Program-made: the position numbers and the translations under genes | The notes under the pieces: generated by a model | What the model was told of the DNA's origin: nothing | The model's database searches: none | Seen by the model: only the letters and a program-made list of their open reading frames with translations | NCBI RefSeq assembly: GCF_028748185.1 | Contig: NZ_CP118164.1 | Span: 6,473,814-6,537,813, forward strand | Direction: 5' to 3' | DNA length: 64,000 bases | Source: Bremerella sp. P1 | GTDB lineage: Bacteria; Planctomycetota; Planctomycetia; Pirellulales; Pirellulaceae | Shown here: in pieces, positions 8,906 to 20,705 of the stretch | Layout of the letters: the number at the start of each line of letters is the position of its first letter | How positions within the stretch are numbered: position 1 is the stretch's first letter

Positions 8906-10261
8906 TTAGGCCAAGTCCTTCAACGGCCCCGTGCTATCTCCGAATGCTTCCACTTCGACTCCCATGCGATCGAGCATCGCATGGTAAAGATTGCATAGCG
9001 GCACCTGACCTTCGGCTGGCAGGTGACGTCCTGAGTTCAAGCTTTGTCCACCACGACCTCCCAAGAGAATCGGGAGGTTATCCGGATCGTGGCGGTTTCC
9101 GTCCGACATACTGGAACCGAACAGGATCATGCAATTGTCCAGCAGGGTCCCGTCACCTTCCTTGATGCTTCGCAGCTTAGTTAACATTTGGGCAAACTGT
9201 TCGACGTGCCAACGATTGATGCGTTGATACTGTTCGATCTTTTCCTTCTTATTTTCATGGTGCGACAGCTCGTGATGCCCACCACGAACGCCGTCAAGGA
9301 AAGAAAAGTTTCTGCCAGATACGTCGTTGGCAAACATCAGCGACGCAACACGTGTGGAATCCGTCTGAAACGCTAGAACGATCAGATCCAGCATGATGGA
9401 AATATGTTCGCGAAAGTCACCAGGCACGCCAGGACGAGACGCGGCTAGAACATGATCATCCACGTCTGGTTGCCAGTCACCATTTTCCCCCTTGGTCGCG
9501 AACTCGATTCGCTTTTCCACTGCCCGGACCGAATCGAGGTATTCGTCCATCTTAAATTGGTCGTCACGACCAAGCTTGGGGCGGAGACGCCGCGCATCCT
9601 CCAACACATAGTCTAGTAAGTTACGATAAGACTCTGCCTTGGCGGAATCGGGAGTTAGCGTCTTCCCGAACAAGCGTTCGTAGACGAGACGTGGATTGAT
9701 CTCCTTGGCCACTGGTCGAGTCGGAGATTGCCACGAGATGTGCGAACCATACAGTCTCGTATAACCGACGTTGCTATCAATTCCGCTAATCACCGGTTCG
9801 GTCCCGAGCTCCAGCGAGGGCAGGGGAGTGAACTGGCCGGTATGCTGGGCCATCAACTGGTCGACCGAGATTCCCCCGCTACTGATATCCTTGCCGGTTG
9901 TCTTGGTAACCGGCATACCAGTCAGGAAGTTTGCCGTCTTCGCGTAGTGACCATCTCCACCGTGACTGTGCTTCTTATCGAGCCCCGTCAATACAAGTAC
10001 ATCCTTACGCACGTCTGCCAGTGGCTTCAGCGATGGGGTGAGCTCGTAATTGTCGCCCGACTCTTTCGGGATCCAATCTTTCTCCCAGACCCCATTAGGA
10101 AAGTACAGAAACGCAGAACGCACCGGTGGACCGCTGGCTTCGGCCGCCCTGGCAACTCTTGGGGCAAGCGACGGCATCCACGGCAAACTTAGCGCAACAC
10201 CGCATCCTTGCAGGAAACGACGACGCGAAAGAGTCTTGGCGGATTGAATATGTTTTCTCAT
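8906..10261 (-). CDS. DUF1552 Tat-exported protein (pair 1)
   Basis: A 451-residue protein of the DUF1552 family. It has a twin-arginine leader (SRRRFLQG at 12-19) followed by a hydrophobic stretch, so export in folded form is expected. The family signature HxxSHH is seen as HHELSHHEN at 329-337, preceded by LAFQTDSTRV at 296-305. The C-terminus has the usual ILLGG(R/G)GG and LLDNCMILFGSSM segments. DUF1552 proteins resemble sulfatase/phosphatase-fold DUF1501 proteins and in Planctomycetes almost always follow a DUF1592 gene, as here (33-bp gap). The molecular function is unknown. This gene ends the long minus-strand run that begins upstream at about 25 kb. Confidence 0.92.
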   Translation of the reverse strand: MRKHIQSAKTLSRRRFLQGCGVALSLPWMPSLAPRVARAAEASGPPVRSAFLYFPNGVWEKDWIPKESGDNYELTPSLKPLADVRKDVLVLTGLDKKHSHGGDGHYAKTANFLTGMPVTKTTGKDISSGGISVDQLMAQHTGQFTPLPSLELGTEPVISGIDSNVGYTRLYGSHISWQSPTRPVAKEINPRLVYERLFGKTLTPDSAKAESYRNLLDYVLEDARRLRPKLGRDDQFKMDEYLDSVRAVEKRIEFATKGENGDWQPDVDDHVLAASRPGVPGDFREHISIMLDLIVLAFQTDSTRVASLMFANDVSGRNFSFLDGVRGGHHELSHHENKKEKIEQYQRINRWHVEQFAQMLTKLRSIKEGDGTLLDNCMILFGSSMSDGNRHDPDNLPILLGGRGGQSLNSGRHLPAEGQVPLCNLYHAMLDRMGVEVEAFGDSTGPLKDLA

Positions 10262-10294: not shown

Positions 10295-12289
10295 TTACTT
10301 GTCTGATTTGAAGTAGCGATGCTGAAAAGGAAAGGACAAGGCGATCTCTTCGATCAGGACCGCGGCCTTCAAATCGTTTTCTTTCAGCGTCTTCAAACAG
10401 TGATCAACAACACAGTTGTCAAACTTGTTCAGCTTCCGACCATAAGCAAATCCGATCAGCTTACGGACGAAATGCTTCTGGAATTCGCCACTCCGCTTCA
10501 GTATTACTGTTTTCAATTCTTCCGGTCCGCTGAACTGGTCTCCAGAAGGAAGCTTTCCGGCAGCGTCAATGGGTTGTCCATTGTCGCTTTCTCGCCAGCG
10601 TCCGATTCCATCGAAATTCTCCAAACCAAATCCCAGAGGGTCCATCCGGTTATGACAGCTGGCACATTCGGCTTTCTGGCGATGTACCTCCAGACGCTCG
10701 CGCAGCGTCAGGTTTTTGCCTTCTTCATGCGACTCTTCCAACGCCGGAACATTCGGGGGCGGAGGTGGAACACGTGATCCTAAGACCTCTTCGAGAATCC
10801 ACCTTCCTCGCAGCACCGGGCTAGTACGACGAGGGTATGAGGCTGAAGTCAGTACACTGGCCATCGTCATCACGCCCCCGCGTTGTCGGTTGGGCAATTC
10901 AACACGCTGCCAACCGGCTCCGTCGGAGATCGACAGTCCGTAGTATTCAGCCAGACGCGCATTGGCGTAGATGTACTGGGCATCGACCAACCTGGTCAAA
11001 GGCTCATCTTCCCGAAAGACATTCGCAACGGTGAGGATGGCCTCTTCAAGCATGTCGGCAGCCAATGCGTCGCCAAACTGAGGAAAAACCTCTTCATCGG
11101 GGCGCGGCCCATTGCCGAACTCTCGTAGCCCCAGCCACTGCAGCCCGAAGTTCTCGCCTAGTGCAACTGCTTTGGGGTCCACCAACATTCGGCGTACTTC
11201 TTGGCGAAGTACAATCTCGTCAAATAGCTTTTCTTCGTCCGCCAGTTCCAATAGATGCTGGTCAGGAATCGATGACCAAATCAAAAGGGCCAGGCGTGTT
11301 GCCAGTTGATGGGCCGTGATTCGCTGAACGCCGCCACCGGCTGGTTCCGATTCGACAACAAACAGAAAATGAGGCGAGATCAAAACTGCTTTGAGCGGTT
11401 CCCGCAGTGCTGACACAAATGCATGCCCCCGGGTGAACGCAGCATCATAAATGGTGAGCAGCCGTTCCAATTCTTCCTCCGCGACCGGCCGGCGCCATGC
11501 TCGCCGGGCAAACCGCTCGATACAGTGCTTCGCAGCTTCACGAAGTTCAACATCGGACTTGGGATCATTCTTTTCGTCCATCCCCGAGAGTATCAATGCT
11601 CTCGCGTTGACCACTTCCGTCGACGCACTCTCTTGTTTGTCGGGAAGCGCGGTTTCGATGATTCGATCAGCTGCGACCAGGTAAGCCTCCAAATGAATCG
11701 GGGATGTGAACAATGAATCGCCGACGGTATCAAAGCCTTCGCCACCAGCGCCGTCGGATGGAGGAAGCTCGTCTGGCTTCAACTCCAAGCCGACGAGGTC
11801 CCTAATTGCGTTACGATATTCGGTCCGCGTCAAGCGACGACTCATCACGTGGCCGCGATACCAGGCTTGGGTTTCGTCGGATGCAAGCTGATTACAAAGA
11901 TCTTGATCTGGTCGCGAGTCAAGCCATCCGTAAAAAGCCCCTTTCTGCGGGTCGGTCAGTCCGGGACTACCCTCCGGTGGCATTTCGTTTTGCCGGATTC
12001 TTCTGGCAACGCGTTCCCAAACGTCGCCGGCTTTCGCCGCAACATCACCGCTGGTGAAACGACTCAGGTCGAATTCCCCATCCGCGTCTTTTCCGCTGTG
12101 GCAGTCGATACATCGCGATTGAATTATCGGCAGGATATCCTTTGCATAAAGCTGCCCCCACTTCGACATTTCGGGCGAAAGCTCATCCGCCAGACAGGCT
12201 GGGCACTCCCACACGACGAACGTACTGAGCAGCATTATCGTGCAAAGAACGTATCGCGAATCGCTAACGCGCTGTAAGAGTCGTTGCAT
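10295..12289 (-). CDS. DUF1592 di-haem protein (DUF1587/1592/1588/1585; pair 1)
   Basis: A 664-residue exported protein. The first CxxCH is at C60-H64, followed by the NEMPPEG motif near 101. The DUF1587-type segment RRLTRTEYRNAIRDLVG lies near 151-167 and is followed by LPPSDGAGGEGFDTVGDSL. DUF1595/DUF1592 fill the middle, and a second CxxCH at C542-H546 starts DUF1588 (CASCHNRMDPLGFGLENF), followed by DUF1585. I start at 12289, where an uncharged stretch after a basic N-terminus makes a signal peptide; the frame is open to 12439 without a better start. No Shine-Dalgarno sequence is visible. It lies 128 bp downstream of the MoxR-vWA-propeller operon, so transcription may read through, but I regard it as a separate unit paired with the following DUF1552 gene. 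Confidence 0.9.
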   Translation of the reverse strand: MQRLLQRVSDSRYVLCTIMLLSTFVVWECPACLADELSPEMSKWGQLYAKDILPIIQSRCIDCHSGKDADGEFDLSRFTSGDVAAKAGDVWERVARRIRQNEMPPEGSPGLTDPQKGAFYGWLDSRPDQDLCNQLASDETQAWYRGHVMSRRLTRTEYRNAIRDLVGLELKPDELPPSDGAGGEGFDTVGDSLFTSPIHLEAYLVAADRIIETALPDKQESASTEVVNARALILSGMDEKNDPKSDVELREAAKHCIERFARRAWRRPVAEEELERLLTIYDAAFTRGHAFVSALREPLKAVLISPHFLFVVESEPAGGGVQRITAHQLATRLALLIWSSIPDQHLLELADEEKLFDEIVLRQEVRRMLVDPKAVALGENFGLQWLGLREFGNGPRPDEEVFPQFGDALAADMLEEAILTVANVFREDEPLTRLVDAQYIYANARLAEYYGLSISDGAGWQRVELPNRQRGGVMTMASVLTSASYPRRTSPVLRGRWILEEVLGSRVPPPPPNVPALEESHEEGKNLTLRERLEVHRQKAECASCHNRMDPLGFGLENFDGIGRWRESDNGQPIDAAGKLPSGDQFSGPEELKTVILKRSGEFQKHFVRKLIGFAYGRKLNKFDNCVVDHCLKTLKENDLKAAVLIEEIALSFPFQHRYFKSDK

Positions 12290-12417: not shown

Positions 12418-15267
12418 CTAGTGCCCCTGCATAGACCACGAATAGATCGCGATTCGACCTTCCTTTTGCACGATTCCGAACTGTTCCGGTGCATTACCAG
12501 TGATTACCTGACGCACGGGTTTTCCTAACTGAAGCTCTCCGACCAATTCCATTTTGCTATTTCGCGTCGAATAAATCTGACAGGCCTGATCCGAAGCGGC
12601 GATTACGTTGCCCCCGCGTGTAAATGCCAGGTAAGGGCTGCTAAGCTCGGTCGCAAAATCGAACTCACGTCCATCGAAGTAGTCATCCCAATAGATCCGC
12701 GCGCCTTGTTCCAATGAAACAAGCAGACGCGGACGTGTGTTGGGATACGAGCCGACAATGCGATGAATCGGTTGATCCAAAGTCACCGAACGGGTCGTGT
12801 GGTGATCATGAAACACCAGTTCGCTACCCAGACCAAGGAAAACGTGTTTCGACGTGGCATGCATCGGACAGGCCCTTGTTGGTGCCTCGATGAACATCAT
12901 CAACTGCTGGATGTACTCATTAAGCGAAACCGTGCTAACAAGCTTTTCGTTCTGATCGGTAGCCGTGAGCGCAAACCCATCCTGAGATCTTTGGGCCGAC
13001 CATCGTATTCCATGAGACGTGAGACTCGCTCCCAGCGTATCGATACCCATACTCGCGAGTTTCGTATCGAAGGGAATTCGGTCTTCCTGTGGAAACGTCA
13101 CCGTAGGCGGCACGAGGTGATTGCCAAGCAGCGTGTTAAAGAACACGCGATTGGGTCGATTCGGGTCCGCAGCGAACGCATAGAAGCTTTCGGGGCGGAC
13201 GGGAAGGTTCTTCCATTCTTTCAACGTTTGAGAACCATCCTCCCATGCCATACGAAAGATCCGCAGATGCCCACTCGCTTGGTTCTGAACAGCCTGAAAA
13301 ATCACGTTGGCCGAAACAGCGGATGCAACTGACTCGCATTCCGGCGTAGTCCGCTGGAGTTCAATCATCCGTTCGAAGCAGACACGAACCATATTCTGTA
13401 ATCTTGGTGTCGATTTCGGAGCTTTTTTCTTCTTTTGCTGGCTGAATCGCAAGCAGTCTCGGGCATGCAGGCGATCGTCTGGTTCTAGCCGTCTTACGGC
13501 CTGGAGGATTCGACTCCGGTCGATGATTCCTGACTGAGTTAGTAGTTTCGAAGCTACCACGCGCGTACCATCGGAGGCCAGTTGCTTCACGCTTCGATTA
13601 GGATAGTTGGTCGCGTTATCCGACAGCGTCTCGACCAACGCTACTTGAGTCTGTGGTGGCGGAAAGCCCCTTTGTAGAGCGTTAATCGTTTCCTTGGCTT
13701 CCTCGTGAAATCCATGTCGCTGATAGAGGGCAAACAACTGCCGGAGACTACTGTTAGCTTGATTGCTATGAGGCCAGGCTTCCTCCAGGGATGCAATGGC
13801 TCGAGGAATGTCGCTAATTTTGTTCTCAAGCAGATCCGCGGCTCCCAGGAAGTCGCGTCGATCACGACATTCAATCACTGCGTTCTCATAACACTCGGAC
13901 GCTTCCTTCTCTTGTTCCAGCTGACGAAACAAGTCGCCTGCTTTCTCAAACTGCTTCAGTTCCAGATGCAGTTCGATCGCCTCGGTCCAAAAGCCTCCGT
14001 GTTCCAGGCACTCTGCTGCCTGACGTGGGTTGTTGAGCTTATCTTTGTAGAGCAGCGCCGCTTCACGCCAATGCTTTCCTTGTTTGAGTACGTCGGCGGC
14101 CGCACCGAAGTCGGCAAGTAGTTCCGCGAAAATGTACGCAGCCCGGCGATAGCGGCCCAGGCCGATCTCGCGATTGGCTAGTTCGCGGTATTTTTGGATC
14201 AATTCCTGTTGTCGCTGATAGGACAAATCCCAGTGGTCGGCCGGTCCTCCACCTCCCAGGCCCCCGAAGCTGAAACTCGGATTGCGCTGGCGCAGGTGAC
14301 TCGAAGGTGTTGCCATACCACGATGAGCCTCCCCACCAATTGGCAATGCCCACTTGAGCCCCTCGTCAGGATTCATCTCCAAGAGGTTCATCAGGCGATT
14401 AATCTCTTTTTCCCGTTCCGAGAGGACAGCCTCGTTTAGATGTTCGAGCCGCTGCCGAGTCCACTCTTTGAGTTGGTCTAGCCAGCTTTCGCCAGTTCCG
14501 CCTGTCGCGCCGCTACCACCTATGCCGCCGGTCCCGCCACCGGCAACGCCACTACCCAATCCTAAATGGCGTCCGACGAACTCACCTGCTGCCGATGCCA
14601 TATTCAAGCCAGCACCAAAGATCGAAAGTCCAACGCGGCCAAGCGAGTTACCGACGCCCGGTTTCGGTTCGCCCTCTTGGGGTGGAATCTTATCGCTGCT
14701 CTGTCCCTTGGTTCCAATCCCATCTTGGCCCTGTTCGAGAACCATCTCCATGGTTGGGGGCGTCGACGGATAGATCGATGTCAGGCGTGTGGGCAAGTGT
14801 AAGCCTGGCCGTCCACTTAGGAATTCGGTCGACTCCACTGGTCGATATTTGATCAAGTCAGCCAAGGTCAGCACTTCGTCTGGCTCAAAGGCGATAAGCC
14901 CGGCCTGCGGATGCCAGACATACTGCCGAGAAGCGGACAATAGTTCATCGAGTTCGATCGTCGTAGCCTCGGAGCTTAGACGTGACTGAGCTGGGACCAT
15001 CAATCGGTCCGTAAGATGGGTATATCGCAGACACCTTTTAGGCCAAGTGTTATGCACGACGCGGGGGCCCACGAGGACGGCTCCGATTGGTTCACGTCGC
15101 TGCGTGGAATGTGGGACCGGCAAAATGCGAATCGCTAGCTGAGTTCCCGGAATGAAACCTTCCAACACGGCGTTGATCCAATCGCGCACATCATGGCTAG
15201 CCACGTACCAACAAGTGGTCGGACGCTCGACGTGTGCGGAGAATTCCAGACGTAGTACGGCATGCAT
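12418..15267 (-). CDS. bpX6-like N-terminus, TPR-like middle and beta-propeller: third component of MoxR-vWA-propeller ternary system
   Basis: A 949-residue protein without signal peptide, so probably cytoplasmic. Residues 1-145 form an alpha/beta domain ending in VWHPQAGLIAFEPDEVLTLADL, which I recall from bpX6 domains of MoxR-vWA-beta-propeller ternary systems. A linker very rich in glycine covers about 204-260. Then come two helical segments, 262-305 and a TPR-like array at 346-500 (RRAAYIF, WREAALLY, RQAAECL, WTEAIELH, EKAGDLF, KEASECYE). Residues from about 620 to the end are beta-rich, with repeating strand-turn patterns that suggest a divergent propeller. The ATG overlaps the upstream stop in TAATG. 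In the published model propellers and TPRs in such systems recognise a target or partner while MoxR/vWA supply ATP-driven remodelling. The role here is inferred. Confidence 0.75.
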   Translation of the reverse strand: MHAVLRLEFSAHVERPTTCWYVASHDVRDWINAVLEGFIPGTQLAIRILPVPHSTQRREPIGAVLVGPRVVHNTWPKRCLRYTHLTDRLMVPAQSRLSSEATTIELDELLSASRQYVWHPQAGLIAFEPDEVLTLADLIKYRPVESTEFLSGRPGLHLPTRLTSIYPSTPPTMEMVLEQGQDGIGTKGQSSDKIPPQEGEPKPGVGNSLGRVGLSIFGAGLNMASAAGEFVGRHLGLGSGVAGGGTGGIGGSGATGGTGESWLDQLKEWTRQRLEHLNEAVLSEREKEINRLMNLLEMNPDEGLKWALPIGGEAHRGMATPSSHLRQRNPSFSFGGLGGGGPADHWDLSYQRQQELIQKYRELANREIGLGRYRRAAYIFAELLADFGAAADVLKQGKHWREAALLYKDKLNNPRQAAECLEHGGFWTEAIELHLELKQFEKAGDLFRQLEQEKEASECYENAVIECRDRRDFLGAADLLENKISDIPRAIASLEEAWPHSNQANSSLRQLFALYQRHGFHEEAKETINALQRGFPPPQTQVALVETLSDNATNYPNRSVKQLASDGTRVVASKLLTQSGIIDRSRILQAVRRLEPDDRLHARDCLRFSQQKKKKAPKSTPRLQNMVRVCFERMIELQRTTPECESVASAVSANVIFQAVQNQASGHLRIFRMAWEDGSQTLKEWKNLPVRPESFYAFAADPNRPNRVFFNTLLGNHLVPPTVTFPQEDRIPFDTKLASMGIDTLGASLTSHGIRWSAQRSQDGFALTATDQNEKLVSTVSLNEYIQQLMMFIEAPTRACPMHATSKHVFLGLGSELVFHDHHTTRSVTLDQPIHRIVGSYPNTRPRLLVSLEQGARIYWDDYFDGREFDFATELSSPYLAFTRGGNVIAASDQACQIYSTRNSKMELVGELQLGKPVRQVITGNAPEQFGIVQKEGRIAIYSWSMQGH

Positions 15268-18017
15268 TAGATCAACTGCTCCAGGAATCCGAGTATTACC
15301 TTCTCGAATATCACCTCATCTGCCTTCTGATTGGCACGCTTCTGCGTAAAGTAATGGGCCCCCCACAGCCGCCCATCCGACACCCAGCCTGCAATAGCTC
15401 CGTCGGTCAACGCGATCGTCACTTCGGGGACCGATCGATCGGCCGACCGCAAATGCAACAAACCTCGGCTATCCAGGAATGCTTCGCTTCCATCGTCCCA
15501 GGCGGCCCAACTAAGCTGAAAACCAATTTCACGAATCTCAAGCGGTGTGAATGGACGCTTCAGATGTGTTTCTGTCGTCATCGACTCGCGTGGAAACCGC
15601 AGATGAACGGCTCCATAAGTAATGTCCAATACCATCCTTTGACCGCGCCGCGTGATTAGTCCAAGTCGTTTCTGGCCCAGCTCACTTTCGCATACTTGAA
15701 TATCGGTAAAGCGATGCCGCGTGTTGCTAGGAGTAATGAATGCCAGAGAGTTGCCGTGAAGGAGGCTCGCCGTACTCTTTCCCTTTACCGAGGCGACTGA
15801 CCGTTTCGCGACGTCGATTAGGTAGTTTCCCAGACCTGAAGAAGTGAGGCACAACCGATTGGCATGCTGCCCCGCCAAACGTACTTGGCTGGATTGTTGC
15901 TTCGGGATTTGAGTCTCCCAAATCTCACCGGTCGCCGTGAAGCATATGTCTCCTTTGTGGGTAATACCGATTGGACCCTCGATTTCGTCGCACTCAAACA
16001 TCTCCATCAGCCAAGGTGTTTCGTCGGGAGGCGAAGAGAAGACCTTCTCCATTCGGATCGCCTGTCCATCGAACGACACCGCACACCATTCGTCATTCCG
16101 AGGATTCCGGAAGAAACGGCCTGAGCATCGCTTCCATGAGCTAGGCATGGCATTGCTTTGCACTTCTTCACCAGAGTTCGGATCAATCGCACAAAGAGCC
16201 GTCGCCCCTTTCTGCCCAAGAAGCACCCCCGCTTTCAATGCCAACGGGACAATTTCGCTGGCGGTCTGGATTTCGCTTAAAGAGGTCGCTTGTTCGCTCA
16301 GGCTCGCCTTCAACAAATACTGTTGGCGAGAATTTGTTTCCACGATGACGGCATAGACCACGTCGTCAGGTTCATCAAAGTGGTACCACTGAAGGCGTCC
16401 CGCCGGTAAGTCGTCAGCCAATTGACGGGCTCCGACATAGACCTGGGAGTGCCAGTGCACCAGTCGCCGATCTTTCGTGATCCCGAGGACGCCATGATCG
16501 GCTAGATGCATCTGCTGGTCACTCGAAACGTTCACAGATAGCAGAAGTGGAAATGGCTTCGCTGAAAAGATGGCCGGTAGGTCGTTTGCCCAATCCTTCT
16601 CGACGAGAGCAGAAAGCTTCTTCGGCTTACTGCCATAGAGGTCATCCAGGTTCAGTATAAGTTCATTCAGCACCTTCTTTCCTTGAGCACCCCGCTGCTC
16701 CATGCGCATCGATCCGTCACGATTCACGGACGCGAGGTACAACATGGGAAACGCCTGAGCGACAAGCGCTTCCTGAAACGTTTTGTCGTTCGCTACATCG
16801 TCGGTCGTGATGAGTACTGGGTTGCTTTCCTCGTCTGGGTCTAACCTGGCCGCCAATGCTTTCAGTACTGGCCCGGGGTGCAACTCTGCCTGTAGACATT
16901 CCAAATGCTCGACAATGCCTTCACGCGTGAGAAGATCAACTTCTTTGACATGAGCACCTTCGGCACGGAATGCTTTGACGACCGTGTACTCATCAGCATT
17001 CGCAACTAAGGCCAATGCGACTGCCGTGGCGTAGAAGCGAGGGACTCCCCACATGCGAATCCCACAATCTAGAAAAAGGGAGAACTCACGCCATGTTGCC
17101 TGGGGTGGAGATTCCCGGCGAAGGTAAAGAGCTTCGTTGGAACTGATACGAACGGCAAGCGTCAGGTCATCGTGTGCCAGTTCGGTCAGCATCAAACGAT
17201 CGAGTGACCCGCGATTCGAGATGTCTGAAATCCCACCGGTAGGTACTTCATCGGGGTCCGAGACCTTTCGAGGCAGCGATACGGCACCCATCAACTGTTT
17301 GGCAAGTTTGGCCACGCCTTGAAGACTGTCATCCTGTTGCAACTGGTCCAGCAAGCAACGCATCTGCTGCGACTGGGGAAGTTCCATCTCAGCCCGCTGC
17401 GGCAATGCATCAAGTGAAGTCCGCTGTCGTAGCTGAATGGATTGCTCGTCGACTCCTTCCAAACCTCGATTGAGCTGGATGAGGTCCGCCAACGAAAGTG
17501 CTCGAAACGGCACTACCTGAAAGCCTGGCGAGTTATACGTTGCGAGAATTTCGTCCATCCCGTGGGTCAAGTACTGGATGACCCCCGACGCTTCTTCAGC
17601 CGTGAAAAACGGTCGCACGTTCTCGAACACCATCTGACAGACGGTCACTCGTGCTTCGGTTGAACTCCTTAAGCTCATAGGTAACATCGTAAGTCTCTTG
17701 AGACCTCCGTCACCCACCAGAACGCTCTCGACTAGCTGACTTGATTCGACCGATGGCTGGTAAACTTCAACGCTACCTCTGACCTCGGAAACAGACTGTT
17801 CCCAACCTTCGCGCATCGAGGCCATCGTCACGACCACGCTCGACAGCGTCGGTAACCCTTGTGGTGCCAGTCGCTCCAAGATCTGGATTAGTTCAGCCTT
17901 GAAGATGATCGTACGGTTATCGTGCCAGCAGATTACTTCACCATCGTCCGACCATTTCCAGAAGGACCTGGTCGGCGGCAACAGGTATTTCTGCGCTTTG
18001 GTCATCTCAGCAGACAT
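15267..18017 (-). CDS. vWA protein with degenerate MIDAS and C-terminal beta-propeller (ternary system)
   Basis: A 916-residue, probably cytoplasmic protein. The segment GGISDISNRGSLDRLMLTEL at 261-280 and DDLTLAVRISSNEALYLRR at 283-301 lead into the vWA core at about 309-460. The first metal motif reads D317-C-G-I-R321-MWG, so the canonical DxSxS is changed to DxGxR; the later VLITTDD strand at 401-407 fits the end of a vWA fold. The N-terminal 200 residues form a separate alpha/beta domain, and residues from about 465 to the end look like a beta-propeller with little sequence identity between blades. The start at 18017 is supported by GGAGGA 8 nt upstream, and the gene overlaps the previous one by 11 bp. 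MoxR and vWA proteins normally act as a chaperone pair; this fusion to a propeller fits the ternary systems described by Aravind and co-workers. Confidence 0.8.
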   Translation of the reverse strand: MSAEMTKAQKYLLPPTRSFWKWSDDGEVICWHDNRTIIFKAELIQILERLAPQGLPTLSSVVVTMASMREGWEQSVSEVRGSVEVYQPSVESSQLVESVLVGDGGLKRLTMLPMSLRSSTEARVTVCQMVFENVRPFFTAEEASGVIQYLTHGMDEILATYNSPGFQVVPFRALSLADLIQLNRGLEGVDEQSIQLRQRTSLDALPQRAEMELPQSQQMRCLLDQLQQDDSLQGVAKLAKQLMGAVSLPRKVSDPDEVPTGGISDISNRGSLDRLMLTELAHDDLTLAVRISSNEALYLRRESPPQATWREFSLFLDCGIRMWGVPRFYATAVALALVANADEYTVVKAFRAEGAHVKEVDLLTREGIVEHLECLQAELHPGPVLKALAARLDPDEESNPVLITTDDVANDKTFQEALVAQAFPMLYLASVNRDGSMRMEQRGAQGKKVLNELILNLDDLYGSKPKKLSALVEKDWANDLPAIFSAKPFPLLLSVNVSSDQQMHLADHGVLGITKDRRLVHWHSQVYVGARQLADDLPAGRLQWYHFDEPDDVVYAVIVETNSRQQYLLKASLSEQATSLSEIQTASEIVPLALKAGVLLGQKGATALCAIDPNSGEEVQSNAMPSSWKRCSGRFFRNPRNDEWCAVSFDGQAIRMEKVFSSPPDETPWLMEMFECDEIEGPIGITHKGDICFTATGEIWETQIPKQQSSQVRLAGQHANRLCLTSSGLGNYLIDVAKRSVASVKGKSTASLLHGNSLAFITPSNTRHRFTDIQVCESELGQKRLGLITRRGQRMVLDITYGAVHLRFPRESMTTETHLKRPFTPLEIREIGFQLSWAAWDDGSEAFLDSRGLLHLRSADRSVPEVTIALTDGAIAGWVSDGRLWGAHYFTQKRANQKADEVIFEKVILGFLEQLI

Positions 18018-18726
18018 AGCCCAATTCCTCCGAAGTGGTTCGAACAGCCGAGCGGGTCGCCTGTACAAAACCCTCGTCCGCTAAGGACAGCCAGTGCCCT
18101 CCTTCCTCCATTACGGCCAGGTACCCTGGATCGATGGCCAATACTGCTTCAAGCACCCCGACGTCCACCGCCGGTTGCCATGTCCAACCGGCCTCCACAG
18201 CGACACGCCCGTGCACGACGAACCTTTTTCCGAAGATCGGTGGGAGCGGTTCTCCCCACACGAAAACCGTACCATCTGCCCTCGCAGCGAACGCAAGTCG
18301 ATCGAGTCTTATCCGGGGCGCGGCGACGGCGTACTGGGTCCACACTTGGATATTCGTCTTGAGAAGCTGTGGTGTCTCGAACGTTTCGCTACGAACCAAC
18401 TCAACTGGAATCGGACTTGGTGCGATACCGCTTAGGCCAGCAATAGGCAGCTTCACCTCTATCCACTGGGCGATGGGTATCCAAGGCCCTTCGGCAACGT
18501 ACCCGTGCGGAACACGTGTCCCCCGCTTGATGAGCTGACCGTCGTCGGTCGCGATGCTATGAACCACTGGGAGTTGCAAGAACGCTTGCTGAATCTCATC
18601 GTTGGCATCCTCACACCGAATCCACACGGTATCACCTTCCGGACATACCTCCAGGCTCGGCTGCGTACGCACGGCACCTAGTAGCTCGCTCGCGTCGCGA
18701 TGCATCTTCCATACGAAGGTTGTCAC
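18007..18726 (-). CDS. Small bpX-type partner protein of the ternary system
   Basis: A 239-residue soluble protein starting at GTG 18726, which overlaps the TGA of the MoxR gene in GTGA. It has strand-rich N- and C-terminal halves, with a central RGTRVPHGYVAEGPWIPIAQWI segment and a C-terminal stretch RVAVEAGWTWQPAVD and LWLSLADEGF-like ending. Tryptophan is abundant. There is no catalytic motif, membrane segment or signal peptide. I recall this type of protein between the MoxR and vWA genes in ternary systems as one of the bpX accessory domains, but I cannot give the number with confidence. Its position and double overlap with both neighbours argue that it is made in fixed ratio with the ATPase and the vWA protein, probably as an adaptor. 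Confidence 0.7.
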   Translation of the reverse strand: MTTFVWKMHRDASELLGAVRTQPSLEVCPEGDTVWIRCEDANDEIQQAFLQLPVVHSIATDDGQLIKRGTRVPHGYVAEGPWIPIAQWIEVKLPIAGLSGIAPSPIPVELVRSETFETPQLLKTNIQVWTQYAVAAPRIRLDRLAFAARADGTVFVWGEPLPPIFGKRFVVHGRVAVEAGWTWQPAVDVGVLEAVLAIDPGYLAVMEEGGHWLSLADEGFVQATRSAVRTTSEELGYVC

Positions 18727-19901
18727 GAGTCGGCTCCCAGACGCTCTAAAAGCTGATTGACAGTTGTTTCAAGGTGGGTCCGCTGCTGAGAATCACGAAC
18801 CCATTGGCACCGCGCAGCAAGGAGCCCGAGTTGATCTCGGACGTAAGCTCGGTCCGTCTTAGGAAGCTCGCCAGTCTCGATACGCTCTGAAATGCGGTCC
18901 AACTCAGCAGCCAACCGTTCAGCGTCGGGCGTATCGTTATCTTGACTTCTAGGATGACTTGTTGCGACTTCCTCCTCAGTCGCCTCACGAAGGACGTCAT
19001 CGATAATGGCAGAAAGGACGTCTTGCTGTTCTTCACGATCCCAAATGTGACGTAGCACCCACATGTCGGTGCGATTCACCACCAGCCGGCCGCAGAGCAG
19101 GGCGCTTGCAGCCAGTATTCTTTGCAGCTTGACCGCGCGACGATCTGAGACGGCAACGCCTACATGCCGCAGCCGATGCACCAAGTCCACATAGACCGGT
19201 TGCACGCCGGAGAGGTCGACCTGACTCAGTAGGGAGTTGAGCCGCTGGATATCTTCCACCGTAACCTCGGCGACCAGGTCGCTTTGGCTCGTATCTAACT
19301 TCCAACCAGCGGAAAGGACACTGGCAAGCTGCTCCTGATGTACGTTGTCGCTGCGGACGCGCAACAGAAAACGATCAAACAAAGCCGCCAGCGCTTCATC
19401 TTGGGGCAAACAGTTACTTGCTCCCACCACCATTAGCGTCGGCAGGTGGCGAGTTTCGCGACCGCGGCGAAAGATTCGTTCGTTGAGAACCAACAACAGG
19501 CTATTCAGAATTGCGCTATTCGCATTCAGCAACTCGTCAAGGAAAACAAACGTTGCCTCCGGCAACATTCCCTCGGTATTGGTGATTAATTCGCCATCGC
19601 GAAGTTTACGAATATCGAATGGACCGAAGATTTCATTCGGTTCGGAAAATCTCGTTAGCAGATAGTCAAAGACTTTACCCTCCATCCGCCGGGCTAATTG
19701 CTGCACCAAAGCGCTCTTGGCCGTCCCAGGTGGTCCCAAAATGAAGAGATTCTCTCGAGCAACGAGGCATATCCCCAACAGATCGATGATCTCGTCCTTG
19801 CCCACGAAAGCCCGCTTCATGGGATCCAACACGCTTTCGCGTAGCTTTTCACCTAGCTCTAGAATCTGGGCCGTTTCTTCCGGTGAACGCACAACACTCA
19901 C
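18723..19901 (-). CDS. MoxR-family AAA+ ATPase, RavA-like (ternary system)
   Basis: A 392-residue cytoplasmic AAA+ ATPase. Walker A is GPPGTAKS at 56-63, Walker B is FVFLDE at 118-123, followed by LLNANSAILNSLLLVLNER, which is close to the RavA/MoxR insert helix region. Sensor 1 is GASN at 160-163, the arginine finger is R177 in LFDRF, and the sensor 2 region is SDRRAVKLQR near 252-261. A charged helical tail follows from about 300. It starts with GTG at 19901, overlapping the TGA of the upstream gene in GTGA. MoxR ATPases form hexamers and work with vWA proteins to remodel or insert cofactors into client proteins; here the vWA partner is encoded two genes on. All catalytic motifs are intact. 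Confidence 0.93.
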   Translation of the reverse strand: MSVVRSPEETAQILELGEKLRESVLDPMKRAFVGKDEIIDLLGICLVARENLFILGPPGTAKSALVQQLARRMEGKVFDYLLTRFSEPNEIFGPFDIRKLRDGELITNTEGMLPEATFVFLDELLNANSAILNSLLLVLNERIFRRGRETRHLPTLMVVGASNCLPQDEALAALFDRFLLRVRSDNVHQEQLASVLSAGWKLDTSQSDLVAEVTVEDIQRLNSLLSQVDLSGVQPVYVDLVHRLRHVGVAVSDRRAVKLQRILAASALLCGRLVVNRTDMWVLRHIWDREEQQDVLSAIIDDVLREATEEEVATSHPRSQDNDTPDAERLAAELDRISERIETGELPKTDRAYVRDQLGLLAARCQWVRDSQQRTHLETTVNQLLERLGADS

Positions 19902-20542
19902 GCCGTCTCTCCATTCTCAGTTGCGTAATCGATTAATGCTAGGTTTGCGGCCAACTCGGGGTACATCCCCACGGCAGCCAGCACATGCTCGCGGACCAGG
20001 TCGTCAGCGAGTCGAGACTGATCTGATTGCGAGATGACCCGATCGACGTATAGCGTCATAAGTCCTGGGCTTTGGTACATTGCTTGGAGGTCGGTATCTT
20101 CGATGCCTGCCATGCCCACCGAGGACAGTGGCCAGTTGTGAGCCCAACCCCTCAAGATCTTTTCCAGGGGATCGTCACTCGAGGCAGAGTGCACAAACTT
20201 GACGAGATCTGGCAGAAAGCGAAATACAAGGTCGACCGAGTAATGCACCTCGGGACCAGCTCTACCGTCGACCGATGGAGCGAGCGCCGCATGCATCGCC
20301 TGCTCGTCCACGGCGCGAAAGATCGCGAACTGACAAGCCAAACAAAACTGCTCGGCCGCCCAACTTGCCGCTTCCGGATTGTACTTAGGAACAGGGCTGG
20401 GGCACTCGAGACGCCACAACCGTTCATACCGCGCAAGAACCTCTGCCGCGGCGGATTTCTGCTGGGGCGGGATAGGCCCCAAATCGGGAACCGAAGCGCG
20501 GCCCTCTCCGAGCAGTGTTTCCAAAAACTGACAGTAGTCCAT
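19898..20542 (-). CDS. Helical small protein, first gene of the MoxR-vWA-propeller operon
   Basis: A 214-residue protein predicted to be almost all helical, without signal peptide or membrane segment. It carries YERLWRLECPSP near 40, EAASWAAEQFCLACQFAIFRAVD near 57-79, and VDLVFRFLPDLVKF near 103-116. I know of no enzyme family with these features. It opens the operon and its TGA overlaps the GTG of the MoxR gene. Small helical proteins at this position occur in MoxR-vWA-propeller operons, so it is probably an accessory component, but this rests on context. A weak AGGA lies about 9 nt before the ATG. The 163-bp spacer upstream must hold the operon promoter; I could not identify -35/-10 boxes with confidence. 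Confidence 0.7.
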   Translation of the reverse strand: MDYCQFLETLLGEGRASVPDLGPIPPQQKSAAAEVLARYERLWRLECPSPVPKYNPEAASWAAEQFCLACQFAIFRAVDEQAMHAALAPSVDGRAGPEVHYSVDLVFRFLPDLVKFVHSASSDDPLEKILRGWAHNWPLSSVGMAGIEDTDLQAMYQSPGLMTLYVDRVISQSDQSRLADDLVREHVLAAVGMYPELAANLALIDYATENGETA

Positions 20543-20705
20543 TCCACATCCTGTGCCAACGTGTTCCTTCGCCCTGTTGTCTTAGAAAGACATTTGCCAG
20601 GACCATTAGTTCGTCGGGAATGGCTCTATCATGAGGATTTGCGGAAAAGAATGCCAGAACGTTGATGGAAATTAAACAGCGTTGGCGACTGTGAGACGCA
20701 ATCGG

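What the first reader, a model, noticed from the sequence alone, without database searches (positions are those of the whole stretch)
12418..20542. Complete five-gene MoxR-vWA-beta-propeller ternary system
Five minus-strand genes overlap or touch at every junction (GTGA, GTGA, 11 bp, TAATG). They encode a helical protein, a RavA-like MoxR ATPase, a small bpX-like protein, a vWA-propeller fusion and a bpX6-like/TPR/propeller protein. From memory, this matches the ternary systems that Aravind and colleagues predicted to act in biological conflict. To my knowledge no member has a shown target, so this is a compact, intact example lying among unrelated catabolic genes.
Basis: partly seen in the sequence, partly recalled or inferred. 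Interest (0 to 1): 0.8.

Follow-up and report, generated by a model that had tools for sequence, protein, structure and literature searches.

The report
Five-gene MoxR-propeller operon, sometimes retron-linked
This is an intact example of a five-gene bacterial protein-remodelling system already predicted from sequence to work in biological conflict; the new point is that relatives of it sit directly beside an anti-phage type of element, a retron, in a few bacteria, which suggests a partner to test.

Summary
The five overlapping minus-strand genes are real and under purifying selection. Pfam names each: bpX4, bpMoxR, bpX2, bpX0/bpX1 (with a predicted propeller and a vWA-like fold) and bpX3-TPR-propeller. 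The fifth protein carries bpX3, not bpX6. It is a member of the MoxR-vWA-beta-propeller ternary systems predicted by Kaur et al. 2020; I saw no experiment on them in the rows my searches listed. The vWA has no significant sequence match here, and its metal site is rewritten.

The cassette is self-contained and patchy: 15 of 60 near genomes (window's own and one remnant included), 27 of 392 across the phylum. One congener lost it by deletion, leaving a decayed tail of gene 5.

New: a link to type XIII retrons (HEAT-SWIM-RNA-RT). Two relatives show all eight genes side by side; a third shows seven, the last cut by the locus end. Around the two complete clusters everything else differs. The window's genome has a complete type XIII retron 513 kb away. 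Retron and operon co-occur (6 of 27 versus 13 of 365 genomes, p=0.0009, not corrected for phylogeny), but not obligately. Best reading: an ATP-driven remodelling complex of the accessory, probably defence, genome. The retron partnership is a hypothesis.

The parts
19898..20542 (-). gene 1, bpX4 protein, 214 aa
   Evidence: Pfam PF19920 E=3.6e-53, residues 5-198; 46-76% identical in four congeners
18723..19901 (-). gene 2, bpMoxR AAA+ ATPase, 392 aa; P-loop GPPGTAKS and Walker B region present
   Evidence: PF20030 1.5e-98, AAA_5 1e-23, AAA_lid_8 2.5e-11; motifs conserved in alignment; dN/dS 0.03
18007..18726 (-). gene 3, bpX2 protein, 239 aa
   Evidence: PF19918 6.6e-50
15267..18017 (-). gene 4, 916 aa: helical bpX0 region 1-242, unstructured but very conserved motif 261-302, vWA-like Rossmann fold about 305-460, all-beta propeller about 500-886, bpX1 and C-terminal helix
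   Evidence: bpX0 and bpX1 hits; AlphaFold2 mean pLDDT 88.6, pTM 0.57; Foldseek PDB matches dominated by propeller proteins as far as I recognise them
12418..15267 (-). gene 5, 949 aa: bpX3 domain (5-180), variable linker with one helix (206-234), TPR-like superhelix 350-614, WD40-like propeller 628-945
   Evidence: PF19919 4.1e-24; bpX3 in 51 of 51 proteins scanned, this one included; AlphaFold2 mean pLDDT 84.0, pTM 0.50; Foldseek, TM normalised by target up to 0.67
20543..20705 (.). 163-bp spacer to the upstream gene; left edge of the cassette
   Evidence: homology of the flank to congeners without the operon stops at the upstream gene's stop codon
12439..12439 (.). right edge: the downstream ORF could start at the GTG here, inside the end of gene 5; its true start is probably further in
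   Evidence: flank alignment with congeners; start is inferred

Best explanation
A five-protein, ATP-driven remodelling complex that belongs to the accessory, most likely anti-phage, part of the genome. SHOWN by sequence: all components are intact and under purifying selection; the cassette recurs as a unit, is patchy, was deleted in one congener, and in some relatives lies beside a type XIII retron. INFERRED: the MoxR ring engages the divergent vWA of gene 4, probably through the ultra-conserved unstructured segment 261-302, as NorD's finger and linker engage NorQ. ATP hydrolysis then changes how the gene 4 propeller holds gene 5 (bpX3-TPR-propeller). bpX2 and bpX4 act as fixed partners of this core. 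The trigger is an invader-dependent signal. In lineages with a type XIII retron the signal may come from the retron's reverse-transcribed DNA complex through its HEAT and SWIM proteins.
For: bpX0-bpX4 plus bpMoxR; models with propellers. Same gene order read directly in 48 of 80 named loci, 12 of 14 relatives' loci and, as all five labels, 17 of 20 further loci; the three sets overlap in a few contigs. Patchy: 15/60 and 27/392 genomes. Loss with a scar: G004 keeps a decayed gene-5 tail (local score 85, shuffle maximum 57 of 1000); a broken remnant in G024. Retron: HEAT_XIII-SWIM_XIII-RT directly after gene 5, same strand, in G042 and Aeoliella straminimaris; HEAT and a cut SWIM in L082. Outside genes of the two complete clusters share no tblastx hit. 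Type XIII retron in the window's own genome. Co-occurrence 7/15 versus 3/45 (p=0.0013) and 6/27 versus 13/365 (p=0.0009). Precedent: other MoxR-vWA ternary systems (VMAP type) are reported beside diversity-generating RT loci (PMC10907252) and type III CRISPR loci (PMC10910872) (passages).
Against: No PADLOC model hits the five proteins, and the Pfam scan showed no effector domain. Near-core in one family (13/16). Most operon genomes lack the retron (21 of 27 in the phylum draw), and HEAT-SWIM-RT triads occur where bpX2 was not found (G072, G101, G361). A strong promoter-like site separates gene 5 from the retron in G042. Co-occurrence is not corrected for phylogeny, and the linked loci form one clade, so linkage is probably one event. 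The vWA is not supported by sequence.
Confidence: 0.5

Rival explanations
1. A housekeeping assembly chaperone of the RavA-ViaA or NorQ-NorD kind that matures or dismantles a cellular, perhaps membrane-near, complex. It has nothing to do with invaders and is patchy because its client is patchy.
For: Purifying selection (dN/dS 0.03-0.15); MoxR tree mostly clustered by phylum (7 changes, minimum 5); 13 of 16 genomes in family f44; bpX3 constant in 51 of 51; known MoxR-vWA pairs do this (NorQD, abstracts of PMC13036017 and PMC9976466).
Against: Absence, deletion and decay in close relatives; no recurrent client gene beside it: the commonest Pfam families reach only 3 of 140 flanking proteins (25 of 160 families shown); retron neighbours and retron co-occurrence.
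Confidence: 0.33
2. A defence system of its own that merely shares defence islands with retrons; the eight-gene arrangement is co-residence, not cooperation. (This overlaps with the best explanation; it denies only its retron step.)
For: Type XIII triads exist where the operon was not found and most operon genomes lack the retron; promoter-like site between the two in G042; in family f44 a different, non-XIII retron-like RT lies near the operon (7 of 13 genomes).
Against: Adjacency with the same orientation kept at 46-56% identity of genes 4 and 5, while both outer flanks of the two complete clusters differ.
Confidence: 0.4
3. The system is a decaying or inactive relic in this genome.
For: Deletion and decay are seen in G004 and G024.
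Against: All five frames open with overlapping starts; dN/dS 0.03-0.15 against G006; Walker A intact.
Confidence: 0.03

Closest known systems
MoxR-vWA-beta-propeller ternary systems (Kaur, Burroughs, Iyer, Aravind 2020; Pfam bpMoxR and bpX domains)
   Same: bpMoxR with the GXXXTAKS-type P-loop (GPPGTAKS), vWA-propeller component with bpX0 and bpX1, TPR-propeller third component, extra bpX2 and bpX4 genes; planctomycetes are among the hosts the paper names (the window's host is taken to be one from its named relatives)
   Different: The N-terminal domain of the third component is bpX3 in all 51 proteins scanned rather than highly variable; the window copy has no clear membrane-spanning segment (best 19-residue hydropathy 1.09). 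My model has 35 strands in the propeller part, more than 'about four blades' would need. The paper's main text has no retron link (term 'retron' once, in the passage on diversity-generating RTs).
RavA-ViaA and NorQ-NorD MoxR/vWA chaperone pairs
   Same: MoxR AAA+ with an operonic vWA-type partner; RavA is the best NCBIfam match (2.6e-48)
   Different: 165 bits against a cut-off of 681, match limited to residues 37-306; vWA metal site rewritten; extra propeller proteins
FtsH ternary systems (same paper)
   Same: The paper notes shared divergent vWA and P-loop; bpX2 has a weak fvmX7 hit (0.019, below cut-off)
   Different: No FtsH or ubiquitin-like domain in the Pfam scan of the five proteins
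VMAP ternary systems
   Same: MoxR-vWA core; reported beside other nucleic-acid-based loci (DGR in PMC10907252, type III CRISPR in PMC10910872; passages)
   Different: Different third component; no VMAP hit here
Type XIII retrons (PADLOC RT_XIII, HEAT-ARM_XIII, SWIM_XIII)
   Same: Found directly beside relatives of the operon and elsewhere in the window's genome
   Different: The window operon itself contains no retron gene

Membership tests
MoxR-vWA-beta-propeller ternary system | bpMoxR ATPase with GXXXTAKS-type P-loop | tested here: met
   PF20030 1.5e-98; GPPGTAKS; P-loop statement in PMC7159879
MoxR-vWA-beta-propeller ternary system | vWA domain in the second component | tested here: inconclusive
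   Fold order beta-alpha-beta-beta-alpha in the model and first MIDAS Asp in 64 of 64; but no Pfam vWA hit, no PDB vWA, hhalign p=0.059 against 14 genuine vWA domains, 0.046 over 12 columns and 0.26 against CoxE-type, 0.54 against the MoxR control
MoxR-vWA-beta-propeller ternary system | C-terminal beta-propeller on the vWA component, bpX0/bpX1 | tested here: met
   bpX0, bpX1; 35 strands between 502 and 886; Foldseek matches E 1e-7 to 1e-5, with poor global superposition
MoxR-vWA-beta-propeller ternary system | third component with TPR and propeller | tested here: met
   helices 350-614 and strands 628-945; Foldseek E 1e-11 to 1e-8; Pfam TPR only below cut-off in the window protein
MoxR-vWA-beta-propeller ternary system | highly variable N-terminus with membrane-spanning segment in the third component (described as typical, not strictly defining) | tested here: not met
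   bpX3 in 51 of 51 (the set was picked by likeness to whole gene 5, which may hide swapped ends); window linker hydropathy 1.09, not above shuffles (p=0.11); TM-like segment in 8 of 51
MoxR-vWA-beta-propeller ternary system | role in biological conflict | not testable with these tools
   prediction in PMC7159879; only indirect genomic evidence here
RavA-ViaA | match to the full RavA model over its cut-off | tested here: not met
   165 bits versus cut-off 681, match limited to residues 37-306
Type XIII retron (locus in the window's genome, not in the window) | RT_XIII, HEAT-ARM_XIII and SWIM_XIII genes | tested here: met
   PADLOC 7.9e-156, 5.6e-217, 4.5e-177
Type XIII retron (locus in the window's genome, not in the window) | msr-msd RNA before the RT | tested here: inconclusive
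   conserved 260-350 nt gap in six genomes, 66 predicted pairs, 22 with at least one both-sides change, but RNAalifold's net covariation term is unfavourable (+2.04); no Rfam hit; reverse-transcribed DNA not testable

The most novel reading that the evidence does not exclude
bpX ternary systems are the ATP-driven remodelling and execution arm for type XIII retrons: the retron RNA-DNA complex senses invasion, its HEAT and SWIM proteins pass the signal to bpX2, bpX4 and gene 4, and the MoxR ring releases the gene 5 propeller protein. In some lineages the two modules are one eight-gene locus; in the window's genome they work from two places.
Probability: 0.22. Interest if true: 0.82.

Novelty: new member of a known kind. 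Interest (0 to 1): 0.5.

Why it matters
The beta-propeller ternary systems were called enigmatic because they lack conventional effectors (PMC7159879, passage), and in the rows my searches listed I saw no experiment that gives one a target. A physical and statistical link to a defined retron type would give a concrete partner to test. It also offers natural eight-gene clusters that can be moved as one piece into a laboratory host.

Tried and rejected
Rejected: bpX6 in gene 5 (bpX3 in 51 of 51). Rejected as shown: a vWA by sequence. Rejected: a general membrane anchor; the linker is TM-like in 8, moderately hydrophobic in 15, amphipathic beyond shuffles in 12 and none of these in 16 of 51. Rejected: fast, hypervariable evolution (dN/dS 0.03-0.15). 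Rejected as specific: presence of any retron-like RT. The raw counts differ (34 of 38 genomes with the operon, 33 of 64 without; p=8e-5), but the two samples differ in lineage, and in class relatives of family f21 RTs of about 40% identity occur with and without the operon. Rejected: retron XIII needs the operon. Not significant: a scar in G001 (p=0.23). In the Foldseek search of gene 4 the 50 rows shown are named by complex; those I recognise are propeller proteins, so its vWA was not searched by structure on its own. PADLOC scan of 140 flanking proteins (of 293 available; 82 of 97 loci) and of 140 control proteins (of 247 from 20 regions) matched 92 and 35 families at 1e-10; only 25 are shown in each list and protein counts were not resolved, so no general enrichment is claimed. 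Retron models (HEAT-ARM_XIII and RTs, 2-3 proteins each) fill the shown flank list and none is in the shown control list.
Full report
OBSERVATION. Five minus-strand ORFs lie at 19898-20542, 18723-19901, 18007-18726, 15267-18017 and 12418-15267. The junctions are GTGA, GTGA, an 11-bp overlap with a GGAGG before the ATG at 18017, and TAATG. Against congener G006 the five genes have dN/dS 0.15, 0.03, 0.15, 0.07 and 0.08; dS is 1.0-2.0, so these ratios are rough, but the genes are clearly under purifying selection.

WHAT THE PROTEINS ARE. Pfam assigns bpX4, bpMoxR, bpX2, bpX0 plus bpX1, and bpX3, all over their cut-offs. NCBIfam's best match for gene 2 is RavA, far below its cut-off. PADLOC has no hit for any of the five. 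In Kaur et al. 2020 (PMC7159879; outline, passages and part 1 of section 35 seen) these are the beta-propeller ternary systems. [quoted passage not shown] The P-loop GPPGTAKS fits the peculiar GXXXTAKS form the paper names. Searches for these names (lists of 12, 1 and 20 of 64 rows) showed no study of the propeller type. Passages of four listed papers were checked: two deal with VMAP-type ternary systems beside diversity-generating RTs (PMC10907252) and type III CRISPR (PMC10910872), PMC8195603 and PMC9489729 have nothing on bpX, and 'retron' occurs in none of the three searched for it.

STRUCTURE. Gene 4, with an alignment of 64 sequences, gave a model of mean pLDDT 88.6 but pTM 0.57, so domain placement is unsure. 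It has a helical N-terminus, a Rossmann-type domain at about 305-460, and an all-beta part of 35 strands from 502 to 886. The best Foldseek matches are mostly propeller proteins as far as I recognise them, with modest E-values and poor global superposition. Gene 5 (51 sequences, mean pLDDT 84.0, pTM 0.50) has an alpha/beta bpX3 domain, a disordered linker with one helix, a TPR-like superhelix and a WD40-like propeller. The vWA is not supported by sequence: no Pfam hit, no vWA in the PDB sequence search (one spurious match, E=0.02), and profile-profile p=0.059 against 14 genuine vWA domains of the same genome, 0.046 over only 12 columns (or 0.26 with the whole gene 4 alignment) against CoxE-type vWA, and 0.54 against the MoxR control (A4 used 32 of 64 sequences). 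The first MIDAS aspartate (D317) is kept in 64 of 64. The second MIDAS serine position is Arg in 55 and Lys in 8 of 64, the first is Gly in 49, and the distal aspartate is not conserved (the MIDAS layout is recalled and from PMC7159879). A positive side chain thus sits where a metal-binding serine would be. I infer that the classical metal site is lost or replaced, as the paper says for a subset. The most conserved stretch of gene 4 (about 261-302) is among the parts the model leaves unstructured. It is my candidate for docking to MoxR; this is inference, by analogy with the NorD finger and linker (PMC13036017 and PMC9976466, abstracts only).

A FIXED CASSETTE. Among 14 relatives' loci, 12 have all five genes in order, one is cut by its contig end and one is a broken remnant. 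Of the best 80 of 290 named loci, 48 read g1-g2-g3-g4-g5 directly; the other 32 include contig ends, extended or split frames, and a few loci with room but missing genes (for example L077, L087, L115) that I did not resolve one by one. The third component's N-terminal domain is bpX3 in 51 of 51; these were picked by likeness to whole gene 5, so swapped ends could be under-sampled. What varies is the linker after it (TM-like in 8, hydrophobic in 15, amphipathic in 12, none of these in 16 of 51). In four congeners MoxR is 79-93% identical while the other four proteins are 41-79%.

PATCHY AND LOST. bpX2 occurs in 15 of 60 near genomes, the window's own and the G024 remnant included, and in 27 of 392 across the phylum. 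In family f44 it occurs in 13 of 16. In G000, G006 and G008 the operon lies between the same two genes. G001 and G004 have those two genes adjacent without it. G004 keeps a frame-broken tail of gene 5 (score 85, maximum of 1000 shuffles 57), which shows deletion; G001 shows no significant scar (p=0.23). The MoxR tree puts the window with its congeners and mostly clusters by phylum; no species tree was built to compare.

THE RETRON LINK. Scanning flanking proteins with PADLOC showed retron parts. In G042 the five genes are followed, on the same strand, by HEAT-ARM_XIII (8.7e-184), SWIM_XIII (4e-174) and RT_XIII (1.3e-158). Aeoliella straminimaris (L063, L239, L240) has the same eight genes (HEAT by PADLOC 2.3e-181; SWIM 71% and RT 78% identical to those of G042). 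L082 has HEAT and part of SWIM and then ends. Between these three, genes 4 and 5 are 46-56% identical. G042 and Aeoliella share no tblastx hit upstream or downstream of the cluster; Aeoliella and L082 share only short fragmentary upstream hits. Twenty control stretches of 18 kb, placed by me at round-number positions in 13 operon-bearing genomes, gave no tblastn hit to the three retron proteins. The MoxR tree puts L063, G042, L082 and the unlinked G059 in one clade (100/100), so linkage is probably one event, kept in three lineages and missing in G059. A promoter-like site (11 of 12 matches; one site found, 1.3 expected at the scan's looser threshold) lies between gene 5 and HEAT in G042, so one transcript is doubtful.

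THE WINDOW'S OWN GENOME has HEAT, SWIM and RT of a type XIII retron at contig 1, 5967715-5973338, about 513 kb from the operon. The gap before the RT is conserved in six genomes and folds (66 predicted pairs, 22 with at least one both-sides change), although RNAalifold's net covariation term is unfavourable (+2.04); no Rfam family matches. G000, G008 and G007 carry this retron at three sites with no shared flanks. SWIM_XIII (E below 1e-60, a cut-off set after seeing the list) is in 7 of 15 operon genomes and 3 of 45 others (p=0.0013); at the search's own 1e-10 it is 8 of 15 and 5 of 45 (p=0.0017). In the genus it is 4 of 5 versus 0 of 4 (p=0.04), and by genus 4 of 11 versus 3 of 41 (p=0.03). 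In the phylum draw it is in 6 of 27 versus 13 of 365 (E up to 1e-30, p=0.0009); without the window's genome 5 of 26 (p=0.004); with the strictest cut-off 3 of 27 versus 4 of 365 (p=0.0085). None of these tests is corrected for phylogeny, and the two sets share genomes. In family f44 a different, non-XIII retron-like RT lies within a few kb of bpX2 in 7 of 13 operon genomes; these are one family and count as one case.

AGAINST THE LINK. HEAT-SWIM-RT triads stand in G072, G101 and G361, where bpX2 was not found (G361 is only 64% complete) and no MoxR lies in the fetched stretch, and 21 of 27 operon genomes in the phylum draw lack SWIM_XIII. Any partnership is therefore optional or lineage-specific, and simple co-residence in defence islands explains much of the pattern. 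Searches for a published link (most lists capped) showed none in the rows listed. 'Retron' with 'MoxR' gave two papers, the 2020 paper and a phage genome paper; two retron papers searched for type XIII had no mention. The retron classification paper I wanted is not held, so I cannot say the link is unpublished.

VERDICT. The operon is a genuine, ordinary member of a known predicted kind. What makes it worth a second look is a concrete and testable partner suggested by its relatives.

Noticed in passing
L228:4716-10339 (window's genome, contig 1, 5967715-5973338; outside the window): HEAT, SWIM and RT genes of a type XIII retron, with a structured gap before the RT, in the same genome as the window.
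   Followed up: yes
L027:6148-19804; L239/L240; L082:8333-19142: Eight-gene clusters: bpX operon followed by HEAT, SWIM and RT of a type XIII retron (L082 shows seven genes, the last cut by the locus end).
   Followed up: yes
L208, L209, L212, L216, L217, L218 (family f44): A retron-like RT of another group (for L217 PADLOC RT_other best) lies near gene 1; its RNA and partners were not examined.
   Followed up: partly
L145 about 10353-10530: Decayed tail of gene 5 at the operon-free site of congener G004.
   Followed up: yes
L038:10793-11790: Broken remnant of the operon in G024: MoxR in three short frames, a bpX2 fragment.
   Followed up: partly
window 17067-17069 (gene 4 residue 317) and residues 319, 321: MIDAS motif rewritten as D-x-G-x-R/K; Arg or Lys in 63 of 64 aligned proteins where a metal-binding Ser is expected.
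   Followed up: partly
L131:3465-7022; L070:10962-11921; L094:3822-5856: Extra ORFs or gaps inside the five-gene cassette of three relatives (1185-aa ORF between genes 3 and 4; 319-aa ORF on the other strand; 2-kb gap between genes 1 and 2).
   Followed up: no
window 8906-10261 and genome-wide: The downstream gene (DUF1552-type by recall) has 28 matches in this genome, a large paralogous family.
   Followed up: no
L217:2126-4327 and similar 690-740 aa ORFs in L212, L216, L218: A large ORF near the gene 5 side recurs by length in several f44 loci; the L217 copy has no PADLOC hit. Homology among them was not tested.
   Followed up: no
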